Positions 977 to 49,270 of a stretch of 64,000 bases of DNA are shown here, piece after piece; the first letter of the stretch is position 1, and every line of letters begins with the position of its first letter. This DNA is from Solirubrobacter pauli (GTDB taxonomy: Bacteria > Actinomycetota > Thermoleophilia > Solirubrobacterales > Solirubrobacteraceae): contig NZ_RBIL01000001.1 of assembly GCF_003633755.1 (NCBI RefSeq), positions 3,457,426 to 3,521,425 of the forward strand. The letters are read 5' to 3'. The translations under genes and the position numbers were made by a program. Under the pieces are notes generated by a model. It ran no database searches and was not told the origin of the DNA. It saw only the letters and a list, made by a program, of their open reading frames with translations.

Positions 977-2293
977 TTAAGCGACCGCTCCGTACTGCTC
1001 GATCGCGTACCCGAGGAGGCCGGCGGCCTCGAGCGCGGGCAGCGGCGCCCGGAACGTGACCTGCACGACGCCCGGCGCGCGACCGATCTCGATCGCGCCC
1101 GTGATCGTGGCGCGGTTCATCACCTCGGGCACGCTCATGTCCAGCAGCTTCGCGGCGCGCGCCAGGCCGTTGTCGGTCGCCGAGTTCAGGTCCGGGCCGG
1201 TGCCGATGACCGAGATCGGCAGCGACTCCTCGATCGCCGTGACGCCCTCGCGCTCGGCCAGCGCCAGCGCGCGGGCGCGCTCGTCGGCGGTCAGCGGACG
1301 CGCCAGGAACGGCAGGTCCTCGAGCACCGGGAACAGCACCGGCCCGTCGATGCCGAGCGCCTTGAGCACCTCGACCTGCAGCGTGACCGTGCCGGCCACG
1401 TCGGCGGTGTGCCCGGCGATCTCGCCGTCGCCCTGCATCGCGTGCATGTCGCCGAGGTAGACGCCGCCGCCCGGCACCTTCACCGGGCAGACGAGGATCG
1501 CGCCGGCGCGCACGGCGTCGATGTCCAGGTGCCCGTCCGTCTTGTGCTGCTGAAGCGCCTGGGCGTCCATCGCGAACCTGTGCGGGGCGCCGACGAGGAA
1601 CGCGCCGAAGTCGCCCGCGTTGTGCGAGTCCGGCATCGGGGCGCTGGGCGTCGTGCCGAGCTGGCCGAGGAACGGCCGCATGCGCGTGACCACGCCGACG
1701 AGGTCGCTCGGCGCGAACGTCAGGATCGGGTTCTGCGCGCTGTTGTCCGGCAGCTGGGCGTAGGCCGCGGCGTCGCCCGCGATCTCGCGTGCGCGGTCCT
1801 CGTGGACCGACAGGCCCAGGCGGCCGTCGAACGCGAGCGTGTAGCCGTTGGTGAACGTGAAGGGCGTCGCGTCCGCCCCGCACGCGACGCAGCGCACCGC
1901 GGTCTCGCCGATGCCCTCGAGCCGCGTCTCGGGCCACTCCGCGCCGCAGCCCGGGCACACCGCCGCGCAGTACGGATCGCCGTTGAAGCGGCCCTCCATC
2001 GCCTGGTCGTTGCCCGATGCGGTCGCGCGCGAGGTGACCGCGATGTCCTTGATGCGGATCGCGATCGCGTCGCCCGGCTCCGCGCCCTCGACCGCGACCG
2101 GCGTGCACACCTCGTGCCCGCCGCGGATCGCGGGCGTGATCATCGGCCCCCAGCACCCGGGCGTCGAGTTCCAGACGATGTGCCCGCCGTCGGCCACGGG
2201 GCCGAGCTGCTGCACGTCCGGGCCGAGCACCCCGTCGGTGAACGTGTCGACGATGACGGTGCGGCGTGCGGTCGACGTGTCCTGAATCGCCAT
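977..2293 (-). CDS. Acetamidase/formamidase family amidohydrolase with Zn-ribbon insertion
   Basis: This 438-residue protein matches the FmdA/AmdA family, which hydrolyses formamide or short amides to ammonia and the acid. Family features seen are the STPGCWGP segment, the GPVLFPVLED and EVMNRATITGA regions, and the GDMHAMQGDGE metal-site segment. I start at ATG 2293 because AAGGAG lies 6-7 nt upstream; a TTG two codons earlier sits inside that ribosome site. An unusual insertion at about residues 113-138 carries two CxxC pairs (CPGC and CVAC), a probable zinc ribbon that I do not associate with classical formamidases. It is last in a run recD2, MoaD-like, amidohydrolase, with only 13 nt after the MoaD-like gene. 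The substrate is unknown. Confidence 0.85.
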   Translation of the reverse strand: MAIQDTSTARRTVIVDTFTDGVLGPDVQQLGPVADGGHIVWNSTPGCWGPMITPAIRGGHEVCTPVAVEGAEPGDAIAIRIKDIAVTSRATASGNDQAMEGRFNGDPYCAAVCPGCGAEWPETRLEGIGETAVRCVACGADATPFTFTNGYTLAFDGRLGLSVHEDRAREIAGDAAAYAQLPDNSAQNPILTFAPSDLVGVVTRMRPFLGQLGTTPSAPMPDSHNAGDFGAFLVGAPHRFAMDAQALQQHKTDGHLDIDAVRAGAILVCPVKVPGGGVYLGDMHAMQGDGEIAGHTADVAGTVTLQVEVLKALGIDGPVLFPVLEDLPFLARPLTADERARALALAEREGVTAIEESLPISVIGTGPDLNSATDNGLARAAKLLDMSVPEVMNRATITGAIEIGRAPGVVQVTFRAPLPALEAAGLLGYAIEQYGAVA

Positions 2294-2306
2294 CTCCAAC
2301 TCCTTT

Positions 2307-2552
2307 TCAGCCGCCGGAGACCGGCAGCAGCAGGGCGACCTCCTGGCCGTGCTCCAGCCGTCGGTCGCGGGTCACGTGCTCGCCCGCGACGACCGGCAGC
2401 ACCGATCGCAGCGCGGGCGCGAGGTCCGGCTCGTCCTGGGCGAGCCGGGCGAAGAGCTCACCGACGGTGGCGCCTTCGGAGATCTGGACAGACTTCAGCG
2501 GCGCGGCCGAGAGGCGCGCGAGCCCAGCGCCGAGACGGACCCGAACCGTCAA
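2307..2552 (-). CDS. MoaD/ThiS-family small sulfur-carrier-like protein
   Basis: The 81-residue protein has a ubiquitin-like pattern: an N-terminal beta strand (VRVRLGAGL), a TVGELFARL helix, EHGQEVALLLPVSGG at the end, and the C-terminal Gly-Gly that is thiocarboxylated in MoaD and ThiS. The start is TTG, overlapping the TGA of the helicase gene by 4 nt (TTGA), so it should be translationally coupled. No moaE, thiF or moeB-like activating gene is nearby. It could be a molybdopterin-synthase small subunit or a carrier for another sulfur transfer. Its place between a helicase and an amidohydrolase does not point to one pathway. Confidence 0.75.
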   Translation of the reverse strand: MTVRVRLGAGLARLSAAPLKSVQISEGATVGELFARLAQDEPDLAPALRSVLPVVAGEHVTRDRRLEHGQEVALLLPVSGG

Positions 2553-4666
2553 TCCGAGGCAAGCCTAACCGCCAGGCGCGAATACCGACGCGACGTGTCC
2601 GGCGTGCCCGCCGCCCGGCCGACCACCGCGCGTGTGCCGACCACCAGCGTCGCCACCCGCGCGCGGGTCATCGCCGTGTAGAGCATCTCGCGCCGCAGGA
2701 AGTACGGGCCGGCCTGCGGATGCGCGACCACGATCGCCACCGGCAGCTCGATCCCCTGGCCCTTGTGGATCGAGCACGCGTAGGCGAGCTGCAACCGCGG
2801 CGCCTCCTCGTCGGGCAGCTCGACGACCATGCCGTCGGCGCTCACGATCAGCTTCTCGTCGCGATGGTCGAGCAGCCGCAGGATCGTGCCGTTCATCAGC
2901 CCGAGCTCGTGCAGGTTGCGCCCCGACAGCATCAGCTTGTCGCCGATCCGCAGGCGCCCGCCCAGCACCGGCTCGCCGCCGCGGTTGAGCGCGCTGCGCA
3001 ACCGCGTGTTGAGCGCCTCGATCCCGAGCGCGCCCCGGTAGACGGGGGCGAACACCTGCAGGTCGGTGACCGGGTCGATCCCGTAGTGCTTCGGGAGCCG
3101 CTGCGCCACCAGCGACTCGATCTCGTCCAGGGCCGCCGCAGGGTCGTCCCGCTCGATCAGGAACAGGTCGCGCTGCAGGCCCTCGTGCGGTGCGAAGTCC
3201 GGCATCTGGCCCTGGCGCACGGCGTGCGCGCCGCGGACGATCATCGACCCCGCGGCCTGGCGGAAGATGTGCGTGAGCTCGGCGACCGGCACGACCTTCG
3301 TGGCCACGAGCTCCGCGAACGGCTTGCCCGCGCCGACCGGCGCCAGCTGATCGGCGTCGCCGACGAGCACGACGTGCGTCACCGCGCCGACCGCCCGCAG
3401 CAGCGTCACCAGCAGCTCCAGGTTCGCCATCGAGGTCTCGTCCACCACGAGCACGTCGCCCTCGATCTCGTCCTTCGTCGGGCCCTGCCCGGGGATCCAG
3501 CCGAGCGCGGAGTGGATCGTCGAGGCCTCCATGTCGGTCGACTCGGCCATCCGCCGCGCCGCGCGGCCGGTCGGGGCGACGAGCGTGACCGACTTCTTCT
3601 GCGCCTTGGCCGCGGCGCAGATGAGCCGGATCGTCGCGGTCTTGCCGGTGCCGGGGCCGCCGGTGACGATCGAGATCCGGGACGTGAACGCCGCGAGCAC
3701 CGCCGCCGCCTGCTCAGGCGCGGGGGTGAGGTCCTCCTCGGCGACGACCGCCGGCTTCAGCGACGGCCGCGAGTCGGCCAGGCGGCCGATCAGGTCGGCC
3801 AGCTCCGCTTCCAGCTTCCAGGTGGGCGGCCGGTACGCCCACAGCGCGCCCGCCTCGTCCTCGAGCACCAGGTCCTCGTGCTCGACCATGTCGTGCAGCA
3901 GCTGCGCGTCGGGCGGCGCGCCGCCCACCAGCGTGCCGGCCTTGCTGACCAGCTCCGGGACGGGCAGGCACGTGGAGCCGTCCCGCTCTGCCTCGGTGAG
4001 CACGTGCACGACCGCCGCGCGGCGCCGGCCCGGCGAGTCGCGCGGGATGCCGGCGGCCTTGGCGATGGTGTCCGCGATCTGGAACCCGACCCCGAAGACG
4101 CTCGTCAGCTCGTACGGCCGCTTGCGCACCATCTCGTGCGCGCGGTCGCCGTACTCGGCGGCGATCCGCGGCACCAGCCACGCGAGCCCGTGCGGCGCGA
4201 GCAGAAGGTGGAGCGCGCGCGTGGAGCGCAACGCGGCCCACGACTTCGCCGCCTCCCGCGAGCGCGGGTGCGAGAGCCCGGCGCGGCGGAACGCGAGCGC
4301 CGGGTCCTGGTCGATCACCTCCAGCACACGCTCGCCGTAGCGGTCGAGCAGGTTCGAGGCGCGCTTGATGCCCACGTGGCGTACGCGCTTGAGGTACGCC
4401 AACAGCGCCTCGTCGCCCGACGGCGGCATCGACTCGGCGATCGAGACCTTCACCTGCGGCCCGTAGCGCTTGTCGTCGTGCCAGACGCCGACGACCTTCA
4501 CGTGCTCGCGCTCCTCGAGGTGCGCGAGCGGCCCGATCAGCACGAGCTCGTCGCTGCCACGGTCGGCGTCCACGACCGCGAAGCCGCTCTCCTCGCTGGA
4601 GAAGCGGATGCGGCGGACGACGATCTCGTCCTCGAACGGCGTGCCGGGCGTGTCCATCACTGGCAT
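2549..4666 (-). CDS. recD2: RecD2-like SF1B DNA helicase
   Basis: The 705-residue protein has the RecD2 layout: an N-terminal OB-like region (about 10-80), helix-hairpin-helix repeats (about 85-210), then the SF1B helicase core. Walker A is GGPGTGKT at 336-343, followed by the motif Ia region VAPTGRAA. Walker B is VVDET at about 407-411, and motif VI is near the C-terminus (YACSIHKGQG). RecD2 is a 5'-3' helicase acting outside RecBCD in DNA repair, and no RecB or RecC is present here. ATG 4657 (residue 4) is an alternative start. It heads the run with the MoaD-like and amidohydrolase genes. Confidence 0.9.
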   Translation of the reverse strand: MPVMDTPGTPFEDEIVVRRIRFSSEESGFAVVDADRGSDELVLIGPLAHLEEREHVKVVGVWHDDKRYGPQVKVSIAESMPPSGDEALLAYLKRVRHVGIKRASNLLDRYGERVLEVIDQDPALAFRRAGLSHPRSREAAKSWAALRSTRALHLLLAPHGLAWLVPRIAAEYGDRAHEMVRKRPYELTSVFGVGFQIADTIAKAAGIPRDSPGRRRAAVVHVLTEAERDGSTCLPVPELVSKAGTLVGGAPPDAQLLHDMVEHEDLVLEDEAGALWAYRPPTWKLEAELADLIGRLADSRPSLKPAVVAEEDLTPAPEQAAAVLAAFTSRISIVTGGPGTGKTATIRLICAAAKAQKKSVTLVAPTGRAARRMAESTDMEASTIHSALGWIPGQGPTKDEIEGDVLVVDETSMANLELLVTLLRAVGAVTHVVLVGDADQLAPVGAGKPFAELVATKVVPVAELTHIFRQAAGSMIVRGAHAVRQGQMPDFAPHEGLQRDLFLIERDDPAAALDEIESLVAQRLPKHYGIDPVTDLQVFAPVYRGALGIEALNTRLRSALNRGGEPVLGGRLRIGDKLMLSGRNLHELGLMNGTILRLLDHRDEKLIVSADGMVVELPDEEAPRLQLAYACSIHKGQGIELPVAIVVAHPQAGPYFLRREMLYTAMTRARVATLVVGTRAVVGRAAGTPDTSRRYSRLAVRLASD

Positions 4667-14050: not shown

Positions 14051-14455
14051 ATGTTGTTCGGACAAGAGCACGTCGACAAGTACAAGGCGACCGACGGCCA
14101 GGAGGGCCACGACTGGCAGGGCACCCAGTGCCTGCTGCTGACCACCAAGGGCCGCAAGTCGGGCGAGCCGCGTGAGCTGCCGCTGATCTACGGCAAGTCA
14201 GGCGAGGACTACCTGATCGTCGCCTCCAAGGGCGGCGCCGACGAGCCGCCGGCGTGGTACCTGAACCTGCAGGCCGACCCGACCGCCGAGGTGCAGGTCT
14301 GGGGCGACCGCTTCAAGGCCCGGGCGCGCGTCGCGACGCCCGACGAGAAGGCCGAGATGTGGAAGACGATGACCGCCGAGTGGCCGGCCTACGACGACTA
14401 CCAGAAGAAGACCGACCGGGAGATCCCGATCATCGTGCTGGAGAGGGAGGGTTAG
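14051..14455 (+). CDS. F420-type (Ddn-like) nitroreductase-family oxidoreductase
   Basis: The 134-residue protein matches the deazaflavin-dependent nitroreductase (Ddn/FDOR) family. Family segments seen are LLTTKGRKSGEPRELPLIY, the strand LIVASKGGADEPPAWYLNL, PTAEVQV, and a C-terminal IPIIVLER. These split-barrel proteins bind F420 and reduce quinones or other electron-poor substrates. That makes F420 likely in this organism, although no F420 biosynthesis gene is in the window. It follows NAD-GDH by 9 nt and overlaps the convergent PilZ gene by 26 nt. Confidence 0.85.
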   Translation: MLFGQEHVDKYKATDGQEGHDWQGTQCLLLTTKGRKSGEPRELPLIYGKSGEDYLIVASKGGADEPPAWYLNLQADPTAEVQVWGDRFKARARVATPDEKAEMWKTMTAEWPAYDDYQKKTDREIPIIVLEREG

Positions 14456-14759
14456 GCGACGCCTCCTTGGCGACCGCGGCCAGCTCCGCGCGCGCCTCGT
14501 CGCCCAGCTTCTCGAACCGCAGGGCGTAGATCCGGTAGCCGCGCTCGCCGACCACGCGGGCGCGGCCGTTGATCCGCCCGCGGTCCGGCAGCTCGAACTC
14601 GAACAGCTCGTCGACGGCCATCGGGCGGTTGGCTTTCACGCGCATCCCGCCGGGCCCGAGGTCCAGTGTCATCGCCTCGATCACCTTGCCCGTCTTCCGG
14701 TGCAAAGTGCACTCCAGGGCGATCTCCGTGCGCCAGCTGCGGCGCCGTTCCCCGCTCAT
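14430..14759 (-). CDS. PilZ-domain protein (c-di-GMP receptor candidate)
   Basis: The 109-residue protein has the PilZ pattern: an arginine-rich N-terminus (ERRRSWR) for the RxxxR element, and DLGPGGM at about 37-43 for the D/N-x-S-x-x-G element, with Gly in place of Ser. Beta strands and a C-terminal helix follow. PilZ domains bind c-di-GMP and pass the signal by protein contact. I chose ATG 14759; GTG 14768 adds three residues. GGGAG lies close upstream of the ATG. Three GGDEF-EAL genes and an HD-GYP gene are in the same window, so a ligand source is plausible. Confidence 0.8.
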   Translation of the reverse strand: MSGERRRSWRTEIALECTLHRKTGKVIEAMTLDLGPGGMRVKANRPMAVDELFEFELPDRGRINGRARVVGERGYRIYALRFEKLGDEARAELAAVAKEASPNPPSPAR

Positions 14760-14788
14760 GGCTCCCACACCGACCAGTATGTCTCTTC

Positions 14789-15391
14789 ATGGTCTTCTAC
14801 GAACCCGATAAGCGCGACCGCGGGTTGCTGCCGCACGATCCGTTCAAGGCGTTCGTGGCGCCGCGTCCGATCGGGTGGGTGTCGACCGTGGGCCCCGGCG
14901 GCGAGGTCAACCTGGCGCCGTATTCGTACTTCAACGCCGTCTGCGACGCCCCGCCGACGGTGATGTTCTCCAGCGCCGGGCCCAAGGACTCGGCGACGTT
15001 CGCCCACTCGGGCGGCGAGTTCGTGTGGAACATGGTCACGTGGGACCTGCGCGAGCAGATGAACCTGACCTCGGCGACGCTCCCGCGCGGCGAGAACGAG
15101 TTCGAGCACGCCGGGCTGGAGATGGCGCCGTCGACGCTCGTCGCCCCACCGCGTGTCGCGAACGCGCCAGTCGCGTTCGAGTGCAAGGTCACGCAGGTGG
15201 TCGAGATCGTCGGCGGGAAGAACATCGTCACGTTCGGGCAGGTGGTCGGCGTGCACCTCGACGAGCGCTACGTGGTGGACGGAATCGTCGACCTGACGCG
15301 GCTCAAGCCGATCGCCCGCTGCGGCTACCGGGGCGACTACGCGGTCGTCGACTCGCTGTTCGAGATGATCCGGCCGGACTTCGACTCCTGA
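14789..15391 (+). CDS. Flavin reductase-like (FMN-binding split barrel) protein
   Basis: The 200-residue protein is a flavin-reductase-domain protein. It has the opening RPIGWVST, then NLAPYSYFNAV, PPTVMFSS, FVWNMVTWDL, and the FECKVTQVVEI barrel strand. Relatives bind FMN and reduce it with NAD(P)H, or act as flavin oxidoreductases of unknown substrate. ATG 14789 fits the family N-terminus; the frame is open further upstream but would run across the PilZ promoter. It is transcribed divergently from the PilZ gene, with 29 nt between the starts. Confidence 0.85.
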   Translation: MVFYEPDKRDRGLLPHDPFKAFVAPRPIGWVSTVGPGGEVNLAPYSYFNAVCDAPPTVMFSSAGPKDSATFAHSGGEFVWNMVTWDLREQMNLTSATLPRGENEFEHAGLEMAPSTLVAPPRVANAPVAFECKVTQVVEIVGGKNIVTFGQVVGVHLDERYVVDGIVDLTRLKPIARCGYRGDYAVVDSLFEMIRPDFDS

Positions 15392-15440: not shown

Positions 15441-17384
15441 ATGTTCTTGGAGGCGGCTGGTGGGGTGCTCGTCGGCGGGGGCCTCGCGTGCGTGGCCGCT
15501 GCTGTCGCCGGCCGGCGCTCGTGGCTCGTGGCGACCTTGTTCGCGGCGGCGTTGGCGTGCGCCGCCGTCGACGCGTTCGGCGGCAGCTCGTGGTTCCACA
15601 CCGCCGCCGGCGCGCTCGGCTTCGCGGGCGCGGTGACGATGGTCCTCGAGCGCCTCGGCAAGCCGCTGACGCTGAGCTGGCTGGACTTCGTGATGGGCGG
15701 CTGCGCGGTCGGCGCGCTCAGCGCGACGACCGGCGCCGAGCTCGGGGCCACGCTCGGCGCGAGCGGCGTCGCGGCCGCGCTGGGCCTCGCCCGCTGGCGG
15801 GTGAGCGTGCCGCTCGCCGTCGCCTTGGTCGGCCTGATCGCGCTCGGCGAGCTGCCGTGGCTGTCGGCCGTCCCCTTGGCGGTCGCCGTGTGGCTGCGCG
15901 AGCCGCCCGCGACGCCCTCGCCGGAGTTCAACCCGATCGTGCTCGCGGCGCTGCTGGCGTACGCGACCAGCGCAATGGTGCTGCTCGTGGTCGGCCAGTT
16001 CGTCTCGCTCCCGGCCGACGCCGCCACGCTGGCCACCGTCACGATGCTGACGGGGATGGCGCGGGCCGGCCTGACCGTCGTCGACCGGCTCAAGCACAGC
16101 CACTACCAGGCGGTCACCGACGACCTCACGGGGCTCGGCAACCGCCGCCAGCTCCTCGACGCGTTGCGCGAGGCGATCGCCGCGGATGACCAGGAGGTCG
16201 CGCTGCTGCTGATCGACCTCGACGGCTTCAAGGAGCTCAACGACACGCTCGGCCACCACGCCGGCGACGAGGTGCTCCGCCAGATCGGGCCGCGGCTCGA
16301 GGAAGCGCTCGAGCCGGGCGACACGCTCGCGCGCCTCGGCGGCGACGAGTTCGCGGTCGTGCTCGCCCCCGGTGACGAGACGTCCGCGTCCGCCACCGGC
16401 CTGCGGCTCCGGTCGTCGCTGGAGCGCTCGTTCTCGGTCGGCGGCATCCGCGTGCACATCGACGCGTCGATCGGGATCGCGCTGTTCCCCGAGCACGCGC
16501 AGGACGCGCTCGGCCTGCTCCAGCGCGCCGACGTCGCCATGTACGAGGCCAAGCGCACCCGCACCGGCCACGAGGTCTACCTGCCCGCGCGCGACACGCA
16601 CTCGCGCCGGCGCCTGGAGCTGCTCGGGGAGCTGCGCGACGGCCTCGCCGGCGGCGAGCTGATCCTGCACTACCAGCCGAAGGCGGAGATCGCCACCGGC
16701 GAGGTGCGCGGCGTCGAGGCGCTCGTGCGCTGGGTGCACCCCCGCCGCGGGCTGCTGATGCCCAGCGACTTCCTGCCGCTCGCCGACCACAGCGGGCTCG
16801 GACGCTCGCTGACGGCGTTCGTGCTCGACCGCGCGCTGGTCGAGATCGGCGAGCGGCGTGCGGACGGCTTCGACCTGTCGGTGGCGGTCAACCTCTCGCC
16901 CGCGGACCTGCTCGACCTGGGGCTGCCGTCGGAGGTGGCGCGCACGCTCGAGCGGCACGCCTTCCCGGCGTCCTGCCTGCGGCTGGAGGTCAGCGAGGAC
17001 GCCGTGATGGCCGATCCGGAGCGCTCGCTCGAGGTGCTGCGGGAGCTGCGCGCGATCGGTGTCGCCACGGCGCTCGACGACTTCGGCTCCGGGCACGTGT
17101 CGCTCGGGCACCTCAAGCACCTGGGCGTGGACGAGATCAAGATCGACCGCTCGTTCGTGATGCGGCTCTCCGAGGACGCGCGCGACGCCGCGATCGTGCA
17201 CACCACCGTGGACCTCGGCCGGCGGCTGGGCATGCGGGTGGTCGCCGAGGGCGTCGAGACCGCGGACGCGTGGGACACGCTCGCCGGGCTGCGCTGCGAC
17301 GAGGCGCAGGGGTTCTTCCTCGGCCGCCCGATGACGGCCACCGCGCTCGCGGGCTGGATGCGCGATCGCGCTGCCGCCGCCTGA
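15441..17384 (+). CDS. Membrane-anchored GGDEF-EAL protein
   Basis: The 647-residue protein has about seven hydrophobic segments in residues 1-210, a MASE-like membrane sensor. A diguanylate-cyclase domain follows (about 222-385, GGDEF at 300-304 intact), then an EAL phosphodiesterase domain (about 400-640). EAL landmarks are VEALVRW, the second Glu in LEVSED, DDFGSGHVSL, IKIDRSF, AEGVET and QGFFLG. The inhibitory RxxD site before GGDEF reads EPGD, so product inhibition is probably lost. Both domains look catalytically capable, so the net direction of c-di-GMP change cannot be predicted. No ribosome-binding site is visible before ATG 15441. Confidence 0.93.
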   Translation: MFLEAAGGVLVGGGLACVAAAVAGRRSWLVATLFAAALACAAVDAFGGSSWFHTAAGALGFAGAVTMVLERLGKPLTLSWLDFVMGGCAVGALSATTGAELGATLGASGVAAALGLARWRVSVPLAVALVGLIALGELPWLSAVPLAVAVWLREPPATPSPEFNPIVLAALLAYATSAMVLLVVGQFVSLPADAATLATVTMLTGMARAGLTVVDRLKHSHYQAVTDDLTGLGNRRQLLDALREAIAADDQEVALLLIDLDGFKELNDTLGHHAGDEVLRQIGPRLEEALEPGDTLARLGGDEFAVVLAPGDETSASATGLRLRSSLERSFSVGGIRVHIDASIGIALFPEHAQDALGLLQRADVAMYEAKRTRTGHEVYLPARDTHSRRRLELLGELRDGLAGGELILHYQPKAEIATGEVRGVEALVRWVHPRRGLLMPSDFLPLADHSGLGRSLTAFVLDRALVEIGERRADGFDLSVAVNLSPADLLDLGLPSEVARTLERHAFPASCLRLEVSEDAVMADPERSLEVLRELRAIGVATALDDFGSGHVSLGHLKHLGVDEIKIDRSFVMRLSEDARDAAIVHTTVDLGRRLGMRVVAEGVETADAWDTLAGLRCDEAQGFFLGRPMTATALAGWMRDRAAAA

Positions 17385-19272: not shown

Positions 19273-21453
19273 ATGCGCAGCCACCGTTCAGAGATCGCCG
19301 GCGTGGTCATGGCCGATGCGACCAAGCCCGGCTTCCCGCTCACCTATGTCAGCCCCGGCTTCGAGGAGATGACGGGCTACTCGGCGGCTGACGTCCTCGG
19401 GCGGTCGTGTGCGCTGCTGCAGGGCGCCGAGACGGACCCGCGCGGCATCGCGGTGCTGCGCGAGGCGCTGCGGGACGGGCGCGAGGCGTACGCCACGATG
19501 CTCAACTACCGCGCCGACGGCACCCCGTTCTGGTGCGAGATCGCGCTCGCGCCGCAGCGCGACGAGGGCGGCCGCGTGGTCCAGTACCTCGGCGTCCAGA
19601 AGGACGTGACCTTCCGCCGCCAGGCCGAGGAGCGCATCCACGAGCTGGCCTACTACGACAGCCTGACCGGCCTGGCGAACCGCGCCACCCTGCACAAGGA
19701 GCTGCACGCCGCGCTGGCCCACGCCCAGCGTGACACCGACGAGCTGGCGCTGCTCTTCATCGATCTCGACGACTTCAAGCGCATCAACGACAGCCTGGGC
19801 CACCACACGGGTGACCTGCTGCTGAAGGCGGTCGCGGACCGGCTGCGCGACGTCGTGCGTCCGGGGGACCTGGTCGCGCGCCAGGGCGGCGACGAGTTCA
19901 CGGTGCTGCTGCGCAAGGTGCCGAGCGACGTCTCGGCGGTGGCCAGCGACGTCGCGGGGCGCATCGTCACGGCGCTGCACGAGCCGCTCGACGTGGACGG
20001 CATCCCGGTCGACGTGCGCACGAGCGTCGGCATCAGCACCTATCCGCGCGACGCGGAGACCGCCGAGGACCTGCTGCGGCACGCGGACGCGGCCATGTAC
20101 GTCGCCAAGGGCGGCGGCAAGGACGGCTTCCACGTCTACCGCTCGCGGGGCAAGACCATCGAGACCGCCGAGCGCACCGACGACTTCGATCCACAGGCGG
20201 CGCACGAGGAGCTCGACCGGATCCTCGCGGGGCGTGACCTGCGCGCGGTGTTCCAGCCGATCGTCGACATCGCCGGCGGCAGCGTGGTGGCCTACGAAGC
20301 GCTCGCCCGCGGCCCGGAGGGGTCATCGCTCCAGCGGCCCGACCGGCTGTTCGAGGCCGCGGCCGCGGCGGGGCGCACGGCGGAGCTCGACTGGCTGTGC
20401 CGCGCCGTCGCCATCGAGGCGGCCCTGGAGGCTGGGCTCGGCCGCACCGCGACGCTGTTCCTGAACTGCGAGCCCGCCGCGATCGGCACGCCGTGCCCGG
20501 AGCCGTTCCGCGAGCTGTGGACGCAGGCCGGCGAGGAGCTCGACCTCGTGCTGGAGATCACCGAGCGCGCGGTCACCGACCGGCCCGCCGAGCTTGCCCA
20601 GGTCATCGCCGAGCACCGCGATCACGGTCGTGGCGTTGCGCTCGACGACCTCGGCGCGGACGTCCGCTCGCTGGCGCTGCTGCCGTTCGTGGCCCCCGAC
20701 GTGATGAAGCTCGACCTCAGCCTGGTGCAGGACCGCCCGTCGACCGACCAGGCGGCGATCGTCAGCGCGGTCGCCGCCGAGCGGGAGCGGACCGGCGCGC
20801 AGATCCTCGCCGAGGGCATCGAGGACGAACGGCACCTCGCCGTTGCCCAGGCGCTGGGCGCGACGCTCGGCCAGGGCTGGTTCTGGGGCCGGCCCGGCCC
20901 GCTGCCGCAGCGCACGGGCGGGACGACCGTGCGCCGCCACGCCCATCCGCCGCGCCGTCCGGGCCGCACGCCGTTCGAGGTCGTCGCCGCCGAGCGCGAG
21001 ACCGCGCGCGCCACCAAGCGCCTGCTGCTGCCGATGAGCCACCACCTCGAGCACCGCGCGCTGCGGATCGGCGAGGGCGCCGTGATCCTGTCGGCGTTCC
21101 AGGACGCCAAGCACTTCACCCCCAAGACCGTGCGCCGCTACGAGACGCTCGTGCGCGGCGCGAGCCTGGTCGGCGCGTTCGGCGTCGGCCTCGGCGAGGA
21201 GCCGGTGCCGGGCGTCCGCGGCGCGTGCATCGACGCCGACGACCCGCTCGCCGGCGAGTGGAGCGTGATCGTGCTCGGTCCGCACTTCGCCGGCGCGCTC
21301 GTCGCCCAGGACCTCGGCGACACCGGGGCGGACCGCGAGCGCCGCTTCGAGTTCGCGACGGTCTACGACCGCGACCTGGTCATCGCGGCGGCGCAGACGC
21401 TGCTGACCCGGATCACACCGGTGCGGAGCGCGCTGCTGGACGGGGTGCTGTAG
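19273..21453 (+). CDS. LOV-GGDEF-EAL-DICT protein (blue-light c-di-GMP switch)
   Basis: The 726-residue protein begins with a LOV domain (about 1-115). The photoactive cysteine is C46 in GRSCALLQGAETD, matching the LOV consensus GxNCRFLQGxxTD with Ser in place of Asn. N78 of NYRADGTPFW and Q109 of YLGVQKDVT are the flavin contacts. GGDEF follows (205-209 intact) with an RPGD inhibitory site at 196-199. The EAL domain has EAL at 342-344, LEITER, DDLG, MKLD, AEGIED and GQGWFWG. The last 130 residues (SHHLEHRALRIGEGAVILSA..., FQDAKHF) look like a DICT sensory domain. The protein likely turns blue light into a change in c-di-GMP; which enzymatic activity light favours cannot be read from sequence. 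Confidence 0.88.
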   Translation: MRSHRSEIAGVVMADATKPGFPLTYVSPGFEEMTGYSAADVLGRSCALLQGAETDPRGIAVLREALRDGREAYATMLNYRADGTPFWCEIALAPQRDEGGRVVQYLGVQKDVTFRRQAEERIHELAYYDSLTGLANRATLHKELHAALAHAQRDTDELALLFIDLDDFKRINDSLGHHTGDLLLKAVADRLRDVVRPGDLVARQGGDEFTVLLRKVPSDVSAVASDVAGRIVTALHEPLDVDGIPVDVRTSVGISTYPRDAETAEDLLRHADAAMYVAKGGGKDGFHVYRSRGKTIETAERTDDFDPQAAHEELDRILAGRDLRAVFQPIVDIAGGSVVAYEALARGPEGSSLQRPDRLFEAAAAAGRTAELDWLCRAVAIEAALEAGLGRTATLFLNCEPAAIGTPCPEPFRELWTQAGEELDLVLEITERAVTDRPAELAQVIAEHRDHGRGVALDDLGADVRSLALLPFVAPDVMKLDLSLVQDRPSTDQAAIVSAVAAERERTGAQILAEGIEDERHLAVAQALGATLGQGWFWGRPGPLPQRTGGTTVRRHAHPPRRPGRTPFEVVAAERETARATKRLLLPMSHHLEHRALRIGEGAVILSAFQDAKHFTPKTVRRYETLVRGASLVGAFGVGLGEEPVPGVRGACIDADDPLAGEWSVIVLGPHFAGALVAQDLGDTGADRERRFEFATVYDRDLVIAAAQTLLTRITPVRSALLDGVL

Positions 21454-47243: not shown

Positions 47244-49270
47244 GGCTCGGAGGTTATCCGCGGACCGGGTGCGCCGAACAGGTACCCCTGGGCGTACGGG
47301 CATCCGAGCGCGAGCAGCTGCGCGGCCTGCTCCTCGTCCTCCACGCCCTCGGCGACGGCGGCGATGCCGAGGGCGGAGGCGAGCGACACGATCGCCGCGA
47401 CGATCGCGGCGTCGCCGGGGGACGTGCCGAGCGCGGCGACGAACGAGCGGTCGATCTTGACGGCGCGCACGGGGAGGTCGCGCAGCGAGGAGTAGCCCGT
47501 GCCGAAGTCGTCCAGCACGAGCCCGACGCCCAGCTCGCGCAACGCGGCCACGTTGGCACGAGCCGTCTTCGGCGCGCCCTGGAGCACGCGCTCCTGCAGC
47601 TCCAGCCGCAGCCGGCCGGGCGGCAGGCCGCTCGCGTCGAGGGCGTCGGCGACCACGGTGGGCAGGTCGGGCTGCGCGAGCTGGCGCGGCGAGAGGTTGA
47701 CCCACACCGCCGGGCCGTCCTCGGCGCGCCCGAACGCCGATGCGCTCTCCCGGCAGGCCTGCATCAGCGTCCAGGCGCCGATCTCGACGATCAGCGCGCT
47801 CTCCTCCGCGACGCCGATGAAGTCCGCCGGGGCGCTCATCACGCCGCCCGGCGAGTCCCACCGCAGCAGCGCCTCGTGCCCGATCACCGTGCGGTCGGCC
47901 AGCGCCACGATCGGCTGGAAGGCGAGCCGCAGCTGGCCGAGCGAGAGCGCGCGCTCGAGCGCGGCCGCCGTGCGCAGGCGCTCGCGCGCGTGCCGGCGCA
48001 AGCGCGTGTCGAACACCTCGACGCGGCCGCGGCCCTCGGCCTTGGCGCGGTAGGCGGCGGCGTCGGCGTCCGCCAGCAGCGCGTCCGGGTCCTGGCGGCC
48101 GGCCGCCCCCAGCGCGATGCCGATCGAGGCGGAGAGGCGATGCTCGATGCCGTCGACGTCCAGCGGCTCGTGCAGCGCCTCGGTCAGGCGGTGGCCGAGC
48201 GCGATCGCCGTGTGCTCGTCGATGTCCTCGCAGACGACCACGAACTCGTCGCCGCCGAGCCGCGCGACCGTGTCGGCCGGGCGGACCGTCGCCACGAGCC
48301 GGCGTGCCAGCGCGATCAGCAGCGCGTCCCCCGCCGCGTGGCCGTAGAGGTCGTTGACGGCCTTGAAGTCGTCGAGGTCGATGAACAGCACGCACGCGGC
48401 GCCGTCGTCGCGGCTCGTGCGCGCGAGCGCGTGGATGAGCCGCTCCCGGCACAGCGCCCGGTTCGCGAGCCCGGTCAGCGGGTCGTGCAGCGCCTCGTGG
48501 CGCATCCGCTCGTCCCCGCGCAGGCGCCCGAACGCGGTCGCGAGCACGTTCGCCATCGCGCGCAGGAAGCTCTCCTCGTCGAGCCCGAGGTCGCCCTCCA
48601 CGCAGATCTCGCCGAAGACCTCGTCGCCCGACGCGATCTCGAACGTCGTCAGGTCCTCGCTGTCGCCGCCCCAGCCGGCGAGCACCTCGTCACCGCGCCG
48701 CACGACGACGTACTCGAGCGCGAGCGTCTCGCGCATGCGGTCGACCGCCTCCACGGCGAGGTCGCCGACGTCGGCGCCGGACAGCGCGCGCCCGCCCAGC
48801 GCCGCGATCGCCGCCTGCTGGCGCGACTGGCGCTGCAGCCGCGCCATCGCCTCGCGGTAGGTCGTCATGTCGCGCCCGATCGCGAGCAGGAGCGGCCCCG
48901 CCTCGGTCTCGACGATGCCCCAGCTCATCTCGCCCACGAACTCGCTGCCGTCGCGGCGCAGGCCGTCGGCGCGGATCGTGAACCGCAGCGGGTGCTCGGT
49001 CGCGAAGTACAGCTCCATGTTGCGCGTGTAGCGCGCCCGCACCGCCTCCGGCCAGAGGACCTGGACCGGCCGCCCGACCAGCTCGCCCGGGTCGTACCCG
49101 AACAGCGTCTCGGCGTGCGCGTTGACGAACACGATCCGTCCGTCGCGGCCAGTCGCCACGGTGGCGTCCGGCAGGCCCTCGAGCACGGCCCGCAGCGCCT
49201 TCTCGCCGAAGAGCAGCCGTTCCAGCTCGCTGGAATCCGTCCCCCCGGCCTCGTACTCGTCGGCATCCAT
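47240..49270 (-). CDS. PAS-GAF-GGDEF-EAL protein
   Basis: The 676-residue cytosolic protein has a PAS domain (about 24-140), a GAF-like region (about 150-255), GGDEF (about 262-420) and EAL (about 430-670). GGDEF is intact (RLGGDEFVVV) with an RPAD inhibitory site upstream. EAL landmarks are GHEALLRW, LELQER, DDFGTGYSSL, VKIDRSF, AEGVED and QGYLFG, so both activities look possible. No membrane segment. It follows the VOC gene by 26 nt and is coupled to the 90-residue gene. Confidence 0.93.
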   Translation of the reverse strand: MDADEYEAGGTDSSELERLLFGEKALRAVLEGLPDATVATGRDGRIVFVNAHAETLFGYDPGELVGRPVQVLWPEAVRARYTRNMELYFATEHPLRFTIRADGLRRDGSEFVGEMSWGIVETEAGPLLLAIGRDMTTYREAMARLQRQSRQQAAIAALGGRALSGADVGDLAVEAVDRMRETLALEYVVVRRGDEVLAGWGGDSEDLTTFEIASGDEVFGEICVEGDLGLDEESFLRAMANVLATAFGRLRGDERMRHEALHDPLTGLANRALCRERLIHALARTSRDDGAACVLFIDLDDFKAVNDLYGHAAGDALLIALARRLVATVRPADTVARLGGDEFVVVCEDIDEHTAIALGHRLTEALHEPLDVDGIEHRLSASIGIALGAAGRQDPDALLADADAAAYRAKAEGRGRVEVFDTRLRRHARERLRTAAALERALSLGQLRLAFQPIVALADRTVIGHEALLRWDSPGGVMSAPADFIGVAEESALIVEIGAWTLMQACRESASAFGRAEDGPAVWVNLSPRQLAQPDLPTVVADALDASGLPPGRLRLELQERVLQGAPKTARANVAALRELGVGLVLDDFGTGYSSLRDLPVRAVKIDRSFVAALGTSPGDAAIVAAIVSLASALGIAAVAEGVEDEEQAAQLLALGCPYAQGYLFGAPGPRITSEP
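47251..47256 (-). promoter_or_regulatory. -10 box (TAACCT), leaderless type, for the 90-aa gene
   Basis: Minus-strand TAACCT ends 7 nt before GTG 47243. It is part of a 13-nt string, AGGTTATCCGCGG on the plus strand, that also occurs before larB (39069-39081). Confidence 0.35.

What the first reader, a model, noticed from the sequence alone, without database searches (positions are those of the whole stretch)
19273..21453. LOV-GGDEF-EAL-DICT blue-light c-di-GMP protein
The N-terminal domain matches LOV closely, including the adduct-forming Cys46 (GRSCALLQGAETD), but with Ser in place of the Asn before Cys and Cys88 in place of the usual Asn in FWN. Both changed positions touch the flavin ring, so photocycle kinetics may be unusual. 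A C-terminal DICT domain adds a second sensory input.
Basis: partly seen in the sequence, partly recalled or inferred. Interest (0 to 1): 0.55.

Follow-up and report, generated by a model that had tools for sequence, protein, structure and literature searches.

The report
Light-sensing enzyme with drifting flavin pocket
This gene encodes a predicted bacterial blue-light switch for the messenger c-di-GMP, one of a small group of proteins in which the normally fixed flavin-binding motif of the light sensor differs from species to species, which predicts fast-resetting light sensors and, in some cousins, sensors that lack the usual light chemistry.

Summary
In detail: window 19273-21453 (+) encodes 726 aa, LOV-GGDEF-EAL-DICT, with adduct Cys46 preceded by Ser45 and with Cys88 in the FWN position. 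Sixteen such proteins (window included) lie in 15 of 146 genomes of the same taxonomic family; 14 show all four domains, two are cut by contig ends. Ser45 is shared (8 of 16), and its AsLOV2 counterpart contacts the FMN ribityl chain, not the ring. Cys88 is unique (1 of 16; 0 of 80 other LOVs). In the 80 other LOVs the motif's Asn and Arg never vary. Published variants of these positions for which I saw recovery times recover faster, so a fast-resetting sensor is predicted. DICT travels with EAL: EAL-DICT recurs alone, and one protein elsewhere reads EAL-DICT-LOV-GGDEF. GGDEF and EAL catalytic residues are intact. Best reading: a photoactive, fast-cycling LOV acting on a bifunctional c-di-GMP enzyme whose hydrolase is paired with an unknown DICT input. 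No function was measured.

The parts
19273..21453 (+). whole gene, 726 aa LOV-GGDEF-EAL-DICT
   Evidence: ORF, Pfam
19294..19626 (+). LOV domain, residues 8-118; only about 10 residues precede the first strand, so probably no A'alpha cap helix (inference)
19405..19407 (+). Ser45, position of Asn449 (AsLOV2) / Asn61 (YtvA)
19408..19410 (+). Cys46, adduct cysteine position
19411..19413 (+). Ala47, position of Arg451 / Arg63 (FMN phosphate contact)
19504..19506 (+). Asn78, position of Asn482 / Asn94, kept in 16 of 16
19534..19536 (+). Cys88, position of Asn492 / Asn104; 1 of 16
19597..19599 (+). Gln109, position of Gln513 / Gln123, kept in 15 of 16
19603..19665 (+). sensor-effector linker D111-L131, 21 residues (short-linker class by the LadC definition)
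   Evidence: sequence; definition
19648..20121 (+). GGDEF domain, residues 126-283; RPGD inhibitory-site motif 196-199 and GGDEF motif 205-209 intact
20206..20895 (+). EAL domain, residues 312-541; E342 N398 E428 D458 D459 K479 E514 Q534 present; loop 6 reads DDLGADVRSLA
20983..21420 (+). DICT region, residues 571-716 (Pfam match 577-680)

Best explanation
A blue-light-regulated c-di-GMP enzyme built of two sensor-enzyme cassettes, LOV-GGDEF and EAL-DICT. Blue light makes a Cys46-flavin adduct; the change passes through Gln109 and the 21-residue helical linker to the GGDEF domain and on to EAL, shifting the balance of synthesis and hydrolysis, most likely with net phosphodiesterase output, while DICT sets EAL activity by an unknown input. 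The altered motif (Ser45, Ala47, Cys88) loosens the hold on the flavin tail and the C4=O contact, so the adduct decays fast (seconds or less) and flavin type or occupancy may be relaxed; the protein would then respond mainly to bright light. Shown here: domains, conservation, catalytic residues, pattern among relatives. Inferred: flavin binding, photochemistry, kinetics, direction of output, any DICT signal.
For: Domains and intact motifs; LOV fold and solved LOV relatives; the Cys, Asn482 and Gln513 positions are kept in the window protein, and in 12, 16 and 15 of 16. Variants at the changed positions with recovery times that I saw recover faster: AsLOV2 N449S 0.99 s, about 60-fold, and N449E slightly faster (PMC10751770); YtvA R63K 312 s, N104A 620 s and N104D 1100 s against 2100 s in wet E. 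coli cells (PMC4161478); AsLOV2 N492A 54 s against 80 s (PMC3903614, table). N104I and N104S keep flavin fluorescence in a YtvA-based protein, N104S at reduced level (PMC4041573). YtvA binds riboflavin, FMN and FAD with comparable affinity, and the riboflavin form recovers faster (PMC3836802). The 21-residue linker equals the short LadC class, and the LadC authors suggest EAL as the light target in LOV-GGDEF-EAL proteins (PMC10396304). SL2 is a LOV-GGDEF-EAL blue-light phosphodiesterase (PMC8846402). EAL and DICT are the best conserved domains (70.1 and 71.7% mean pairwise; LOV 66.0, GGDEF 58.0).
Against: The variants are single changes in other LOV scaffolds; neither Asn-to-Cys at the 492/104 position nor Arg-to-Ala at 451/63 was among those I saw, and the text of PMC3903614 says variants of N414, N492, F494 and Q513 typically lengthened the photocycle, although its table gives N492A as shorter. 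A, I, K and T at Asn449 of AsLOV2 gave no flavin-bound protein and N492Q did not express, so this LOV might bind flavin poorly or not at all; two relatives carry Lys there. Four of 16 have lost the adduct Cys, so the photochemistry is not essential to the architecture. LOV-GGDEF truncations of 21-residue-linker LOV-GGDEF-EAL proteins showed no light-regulated cyclase activity, one of them lacking the GGDEF residues. EAL loop 6 differs from the usual DFG(T/A)GYSS (recalled consensus). DICT could not be modelled (mean pLDDT 41.8).
Confidence: 0.55

Rival explanations
1. The LOV domain of this group is on the way from photosensor to another role, a flavin redox sensor or a structural dimerisation part, with the adduct chemistry lost in one branch and only residual in the window protein.
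For: 4 of 16 have Pro for Cys, one of them also Ser for Gln, forming one branch (UFBoot 100 full length, 96 without LOV, 100 LOV alone). Motif positions that do not vary in 80 other LOVs vary here although the LOV as a whole is no less alike (66.0 against 59.9% mean pairwise). Natural Cys-less LOVs, also with Pro, are known, and one from halobacteria binds flavin and changes conformation on reduction (PMC4682037 passages).
Against: The Cys, Asn482 and Gln513 positions are all kept in the window protein; the Cys-less branch is separate from the window's.
Confidence: 0.25
2. An ordinary LOV-GGDEF-EAL photoreceptor with average kinetics; the substitutions compensate each other and have little effect.
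For: N104 changes have only moderate effect in YtvA (PMC4161478); LOV-GGDEF-EAL proteins are common (SL2; many, where the query favours them).
Against: Three pocket positions are altered at once, two of them invariant in 80 of 80 other LOVs.
Confidence: 0.15
3. Cys88 makes a second thiol chemistry in the pocket: a Cys46-Cys88 disulfide or an alternative adduct, giving a redox-gated light sensor peculiar to this protein.
For: Cys46 and Cys88 are the only cysteines in residues 1-120, both at flavin-pocket positions; two bases separate the Cys88 codon from the AAC of three relatives. Relocated cysteines can support photocycling in AsLOV2 (C450V/F494C, C450V/Q513C; PMC3903614).
Against: Found in 1 of 16 proteins; the position lies at the ring edge (C4=O), not over C4a; distances were not measured here.
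Confidence: 0.05

Closest known systems
SL2 of Synechococcus elongatus (LOV-GGDEF-EAL)
   Same: domain order LOV-GGDEF-EAL, adduct Cys
   Different: the passage read gives SL2 a canonical LOV with two Arg on the FMN phosphate and names no DICT (PMC8846402); here the motif is GRSCALLQ and DICT follows EAL
LadC LOV-activated diguanylate cyclases, short-linker class
   Same: LOV-GGDEF with a 21-residue linker
   Different: LadCs were chosen for characteristic LOV motifs and have no EAL or DICT; the A'alpha helix at the LadC dimer interface is probably missing here
Actinobacterial EAL-DICT proteins (Catellatospora L009, L010; own paralog L137)
   Same: EAL-DICT cassette; own paralog 56% identical over residues 309-716
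   Different: no LOV-GGDEF
EAL-DICT-LOV-GGDEF protein of another family of the same phylum (L282, ORF 1425-3647)
   Same: the same four domains
   Different: cassettes in reversed order and a canonical GRNCRFLQ LOV
Natural Cys-less LOVs such as BAT-LOV (PMC4682037)
   Same: Pro at the Cys position in four relatives L129-L132
   Different: the window protein keeps Cys

Membership tests
LOV photoreceptor domain | PAS fold related to solved LOV domains | tested here: met
LOV photoreceptor domain | adduct-forming Cys | tested here: met
   Cys46; 12 of 16 in the group
LOV photoreceptor domain | nine residues treated as LOV-conserved in PMC9098866 (G N C R F L Q N N; filter there at least 8 of 9) | tested here: not met
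   window 5 of 9; group 5-8 of 9; 78 of 80 other LOVs 8-9, but these were chosen for two of the nine
LOV photoreceptor domain | flavin binding and reversible 390 nm adduct | not testable with these tools
   needs purified protein
short-linker LadC-type LOV-GGDEF | 21 residues from D of D(I/V)(T/S) to L of DxLT | tested here: met
   D111-L131, sequence and definition
active diguanylate cyclase | GG(D/E)EF and RxxD | tested here: met
   GGDEF, RPGD
active EAL phosphodiesterase | eight metal and catalytic residues (set recalled) | tested here: met
active EAL phosphodiesterase | loop 6 DFG(T/A)GYSS (recalled) | tested here: not met
   DDLGADVRSLA; the 15 of 16 proteins covered all have the DDxGADxRSLA form
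DICT domain | PF10069 above curated cut-off | tested here: met
   46.6 against 23.8 bits
DICT domain | sensory function | not testable with these tools
   no PDB sequence relative (best E 0.024), AF2 model unusable

The most novel reading that the evidence does not exclude
A natural series inside one conserved c-di-GMP enzyme in which the flavin-holding motif of LOV has been released from constraint: fast-cycling Ser forms, Lys and Pro forms, a form with a second pocket cysteine (the window's), and Cys-less forms that may sense redox instead of light, all driving the same EAL-DICT output.
Probability: 0.2. Interest if true: 0.7.

Novelty: new variant of a known kind. Interest (0 to 1): 0.45.

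Why it matters
It would give natural counterparts of N449S, called the fastest literature-known AsLOV2 single variant in PMC10751770, useful for understanding how light-sensor reset times evolve and as starting points for fast optogenetic switches; and the joining of LOV-GGDEF with EAL-DICT in two orders makes a testable route to the unknown signal of DICT.

Tried and rejected
Whether Ser45 and Cys88 are one joint adaptation: rejected, since Ser45 is shared by 8 of 16 and Cys88 by 1 of 16. Conserved operon: seven neighbour proteins of the window were compared with frames in the 15 relatives' loci (4-10 kb each); at E 1e-8 the only matches were of the neighbouring GGDEF-EAL protein to the LOV-GGDEF-EAL-DICT proteins themselves. 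DICT and LOV relatives in viral contigs: none confirmed. DICT input through the genes beside the own MerR-DICT regulator (L138, one genome only): eight frames gave a T2SSE ATPase, a MarR-type protein, a sigma-70 factor, an NAD-binding protein, an alpha/beta hydrolase, glpX and two without a family; no carotenoid or photolyase gene, so no support for a light role. DICT structure by AF2: two attempts, both unusable; no fold search was made with the second model. PDB sequence search with DICT: nothing significant. Literature search found no paper; that rested on my unverified guess that the genome is Solirubrobacter and gave nothing useful.

The external LOV sample is not random: LOV domains from loci fetched, kept if they have Cys, Asn and Gln at positions 450, 482 and 513: 80 distinct of 220 unique domain hits. 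65 of the 80 come, found with a canonical LOV at E 1e-18 or better; the window's own LOV passed that threshold (3.3e-29), so LOVs as divergent as it could be seen. Not all places were fetched. Without the Gln condition the sample is 87: position 449 N 85, S 2; 451 R 86, A 1; 492 N 85, Q 2; the two Ser cases (L105, L268) both lack the Gln. So Ser before Cys occurs outside the group, rarely. One further hit with Cys at 492 (L201) lacks the other LOV residues and was not counted.

Full report
The LOV assignment rests on PDB sequence relatives (best 9vf7, 8e-34, query residues 8-117; phototropin and bacterial LOV chains follow) and on an AF2 model with block pLDDT 92-96 over residues 11-110; GGDEF and EAL model well too, while DICT does not (block values 30-55 from residue 551). 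Foldseek lists PAS-GGDEF-EAL of PA0861 (5xgb), DosP, PA0575 and MorA first, the LadC structure 8c05 at rank 15 and the LOV structure 9vf7 (MrLOVe) from rank 27; whole-chain superpositions are poor (TM about 0.3), as expected for a multidomain chain.

Relatives. In 146 genomes of the same taxonomic family the LOV query leads to 16 proteins (window included) with this architecture, in 15 genomes of 4 of 25 genera; G011 has two. Fourteen show LOV, GGDEF, EAL and DICT in one frame; L123 and L130 are cut by contig ends. L133 has a GAF domain in front. In one search only 2 of the 7 genomes of the window's genus carry it. A DICT query at E 1e-30 in 399 genomes drawn from the class matched 6 genomes outside this taxonomic family, all in frames of 322-572 residues, too short for the four domains.

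The flavin pocket. Spacings agree with residue numbers in the papers (YtvA 62-79, 62-94, 94-104; AsLOV2 492-513). In the 16 proteins the residue before Cys is S 8, N 4, K 2, D 1, P 1; the adduct position C 12, P 4; the next residue S 8, A 2, N 2, K 2, G 1, R 1; the second phosphate-Arg position R 9, T 3, S 2, A 1, K 1; the N482 position N 16; the N492 position N 15, C 1 (window); the Q513 position Q 15, S 1. Among 80 distinct other LOVs chosen for Cys, Asn482 and Gln513, position 449 is N in 80, 451 is R in 80, and 492 is N in 78 and Q in 2; without the Gln condition Ser stands at 449 in 2 of 87 and Ala at 451 in 1 of 87. The group's LOV is nevertheless not degraded overall: 66.0% mean pairwise identity against 59.9% in the other LOVs. 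So the change is focused on the segment that holds Cys and the flavin tail. By the nine conserved residues of PMC9098866 (passages) the window protein scores 5 and falls below that paper's threshold of 8.

Function of the changed residues, from passages read. N449 of AsLOV2 contacts the ribityl chain; N449S is the fastest single variant cited (0.99 s, about 60-fold), while A, I, K and T there gave no flavin-loaded protein (PMC10751770). N61, R63, Q66 and R79 of YtvA hold the ribityl chain and phosphate (PMC3836802). N104 of YtvA H-bonds C4=O (PMC10949197), with moderate effects when changed (PMC4161478); AsLOV2 N492A is a little faster in the table of PMC3903614, whose text says that N492 and other variants typically lengthened the photocycle. 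The substitutions Asn492Cys and Arg451Ala themselves were not among the variants I saw. Fast recovery is therefore a prediction, not a result.

Tree. The Pro-for-Cys members L129-L132 form one branch (UFBoot 100 full length, 96 without LOV, 100 LOV alone); the window groups with L119 (98, 93, 85) (L123 was left out of the tree without LOV). Several deeper nodes are poorly supported, so the order of changes is not resolved. G011 carries both a Cys form (L121) and a Pro form (L131).

Enzyme domains. GGDEF and RxxD are intact in the window protein; L126 has GADEF and L131 GGNEF. All eight EAL residues examined are present wherever the region is covered. EAL and DICT are the best conserved domains, GGDEF the least. 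The linker from D111 to L131 is 21 residues, the short class of LadC; the authors report about 15-fold light activation for short-linker LadCs and cite no light-regulated cyclase activity in truncated LOV-GGDEF-EAL proteins of that linker length, suggesting EAL as target (PMC10396304 passages). I therefore favour phosphodiesterase as the main light output, at modest confidence.

DICT. In the fetched loci EAL-DICT without LOV recurs in many genomes, MerR-DICT occurs in the own genome (L138), and among DICT frames outside the group only one also holds LOV: L184/L282, EAL-DICT-LOV-GGDEF with a canonical LOV (some frames are cut by the ends of the loci). The same two cassettes thus occur joined in both orders, which suggests a working link between them; that the two joinings are independent is inferred from the order, not from a tree. 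What DICT senses is unknown; the two papers of the library in which I read the word say little of it (PMC8846402; PMC7063779; searches).

Novelty. LOV-GGDEF-EAL light enzymes, Cys-less LOVs with Pro, and the effect of N449S are known. A group that combines these changes naturally, and the pairing with DICT, I did not see in the listings and passages of the searches made; most subscription papers are not held. I rate it a new variant of a known kind.

Noticed in passing
window 15441-17384 (+) and about 47258-48526 (-): two further GGDEF-EAL matches in the window; the genome has 57 places matching the query at E 0.001, so it is rich in c-di-GMP genes
   Followed up: no
window about 14475-14750 (-), probably ORF 14430-14768: PilZ domain match (8.7e-10), a possible c-di-GMP effector 4.5 kb upstream of the LOV gene; my own scan used another frame and found nothing
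   Followed up: partly
window 14666-15391 (+): flavin reductase-like protein, PF01613
   Followed up: no
L137 5021-6430 (-), about 33 kb before the window start: EAL-DICT paralog, 56% identical to residues 309-716
   Followed up: partly
L138 4282-5187 (-): MerR-DICT regulator in the same genome, near a sigma factor gene and divergent from an NAD-binding protein gene
   Followed up: partly
L136 4857-6389 (+): canonical LOV-GAF-SpoIIE phosphatase-like protein in the same genome
   Followed up: no
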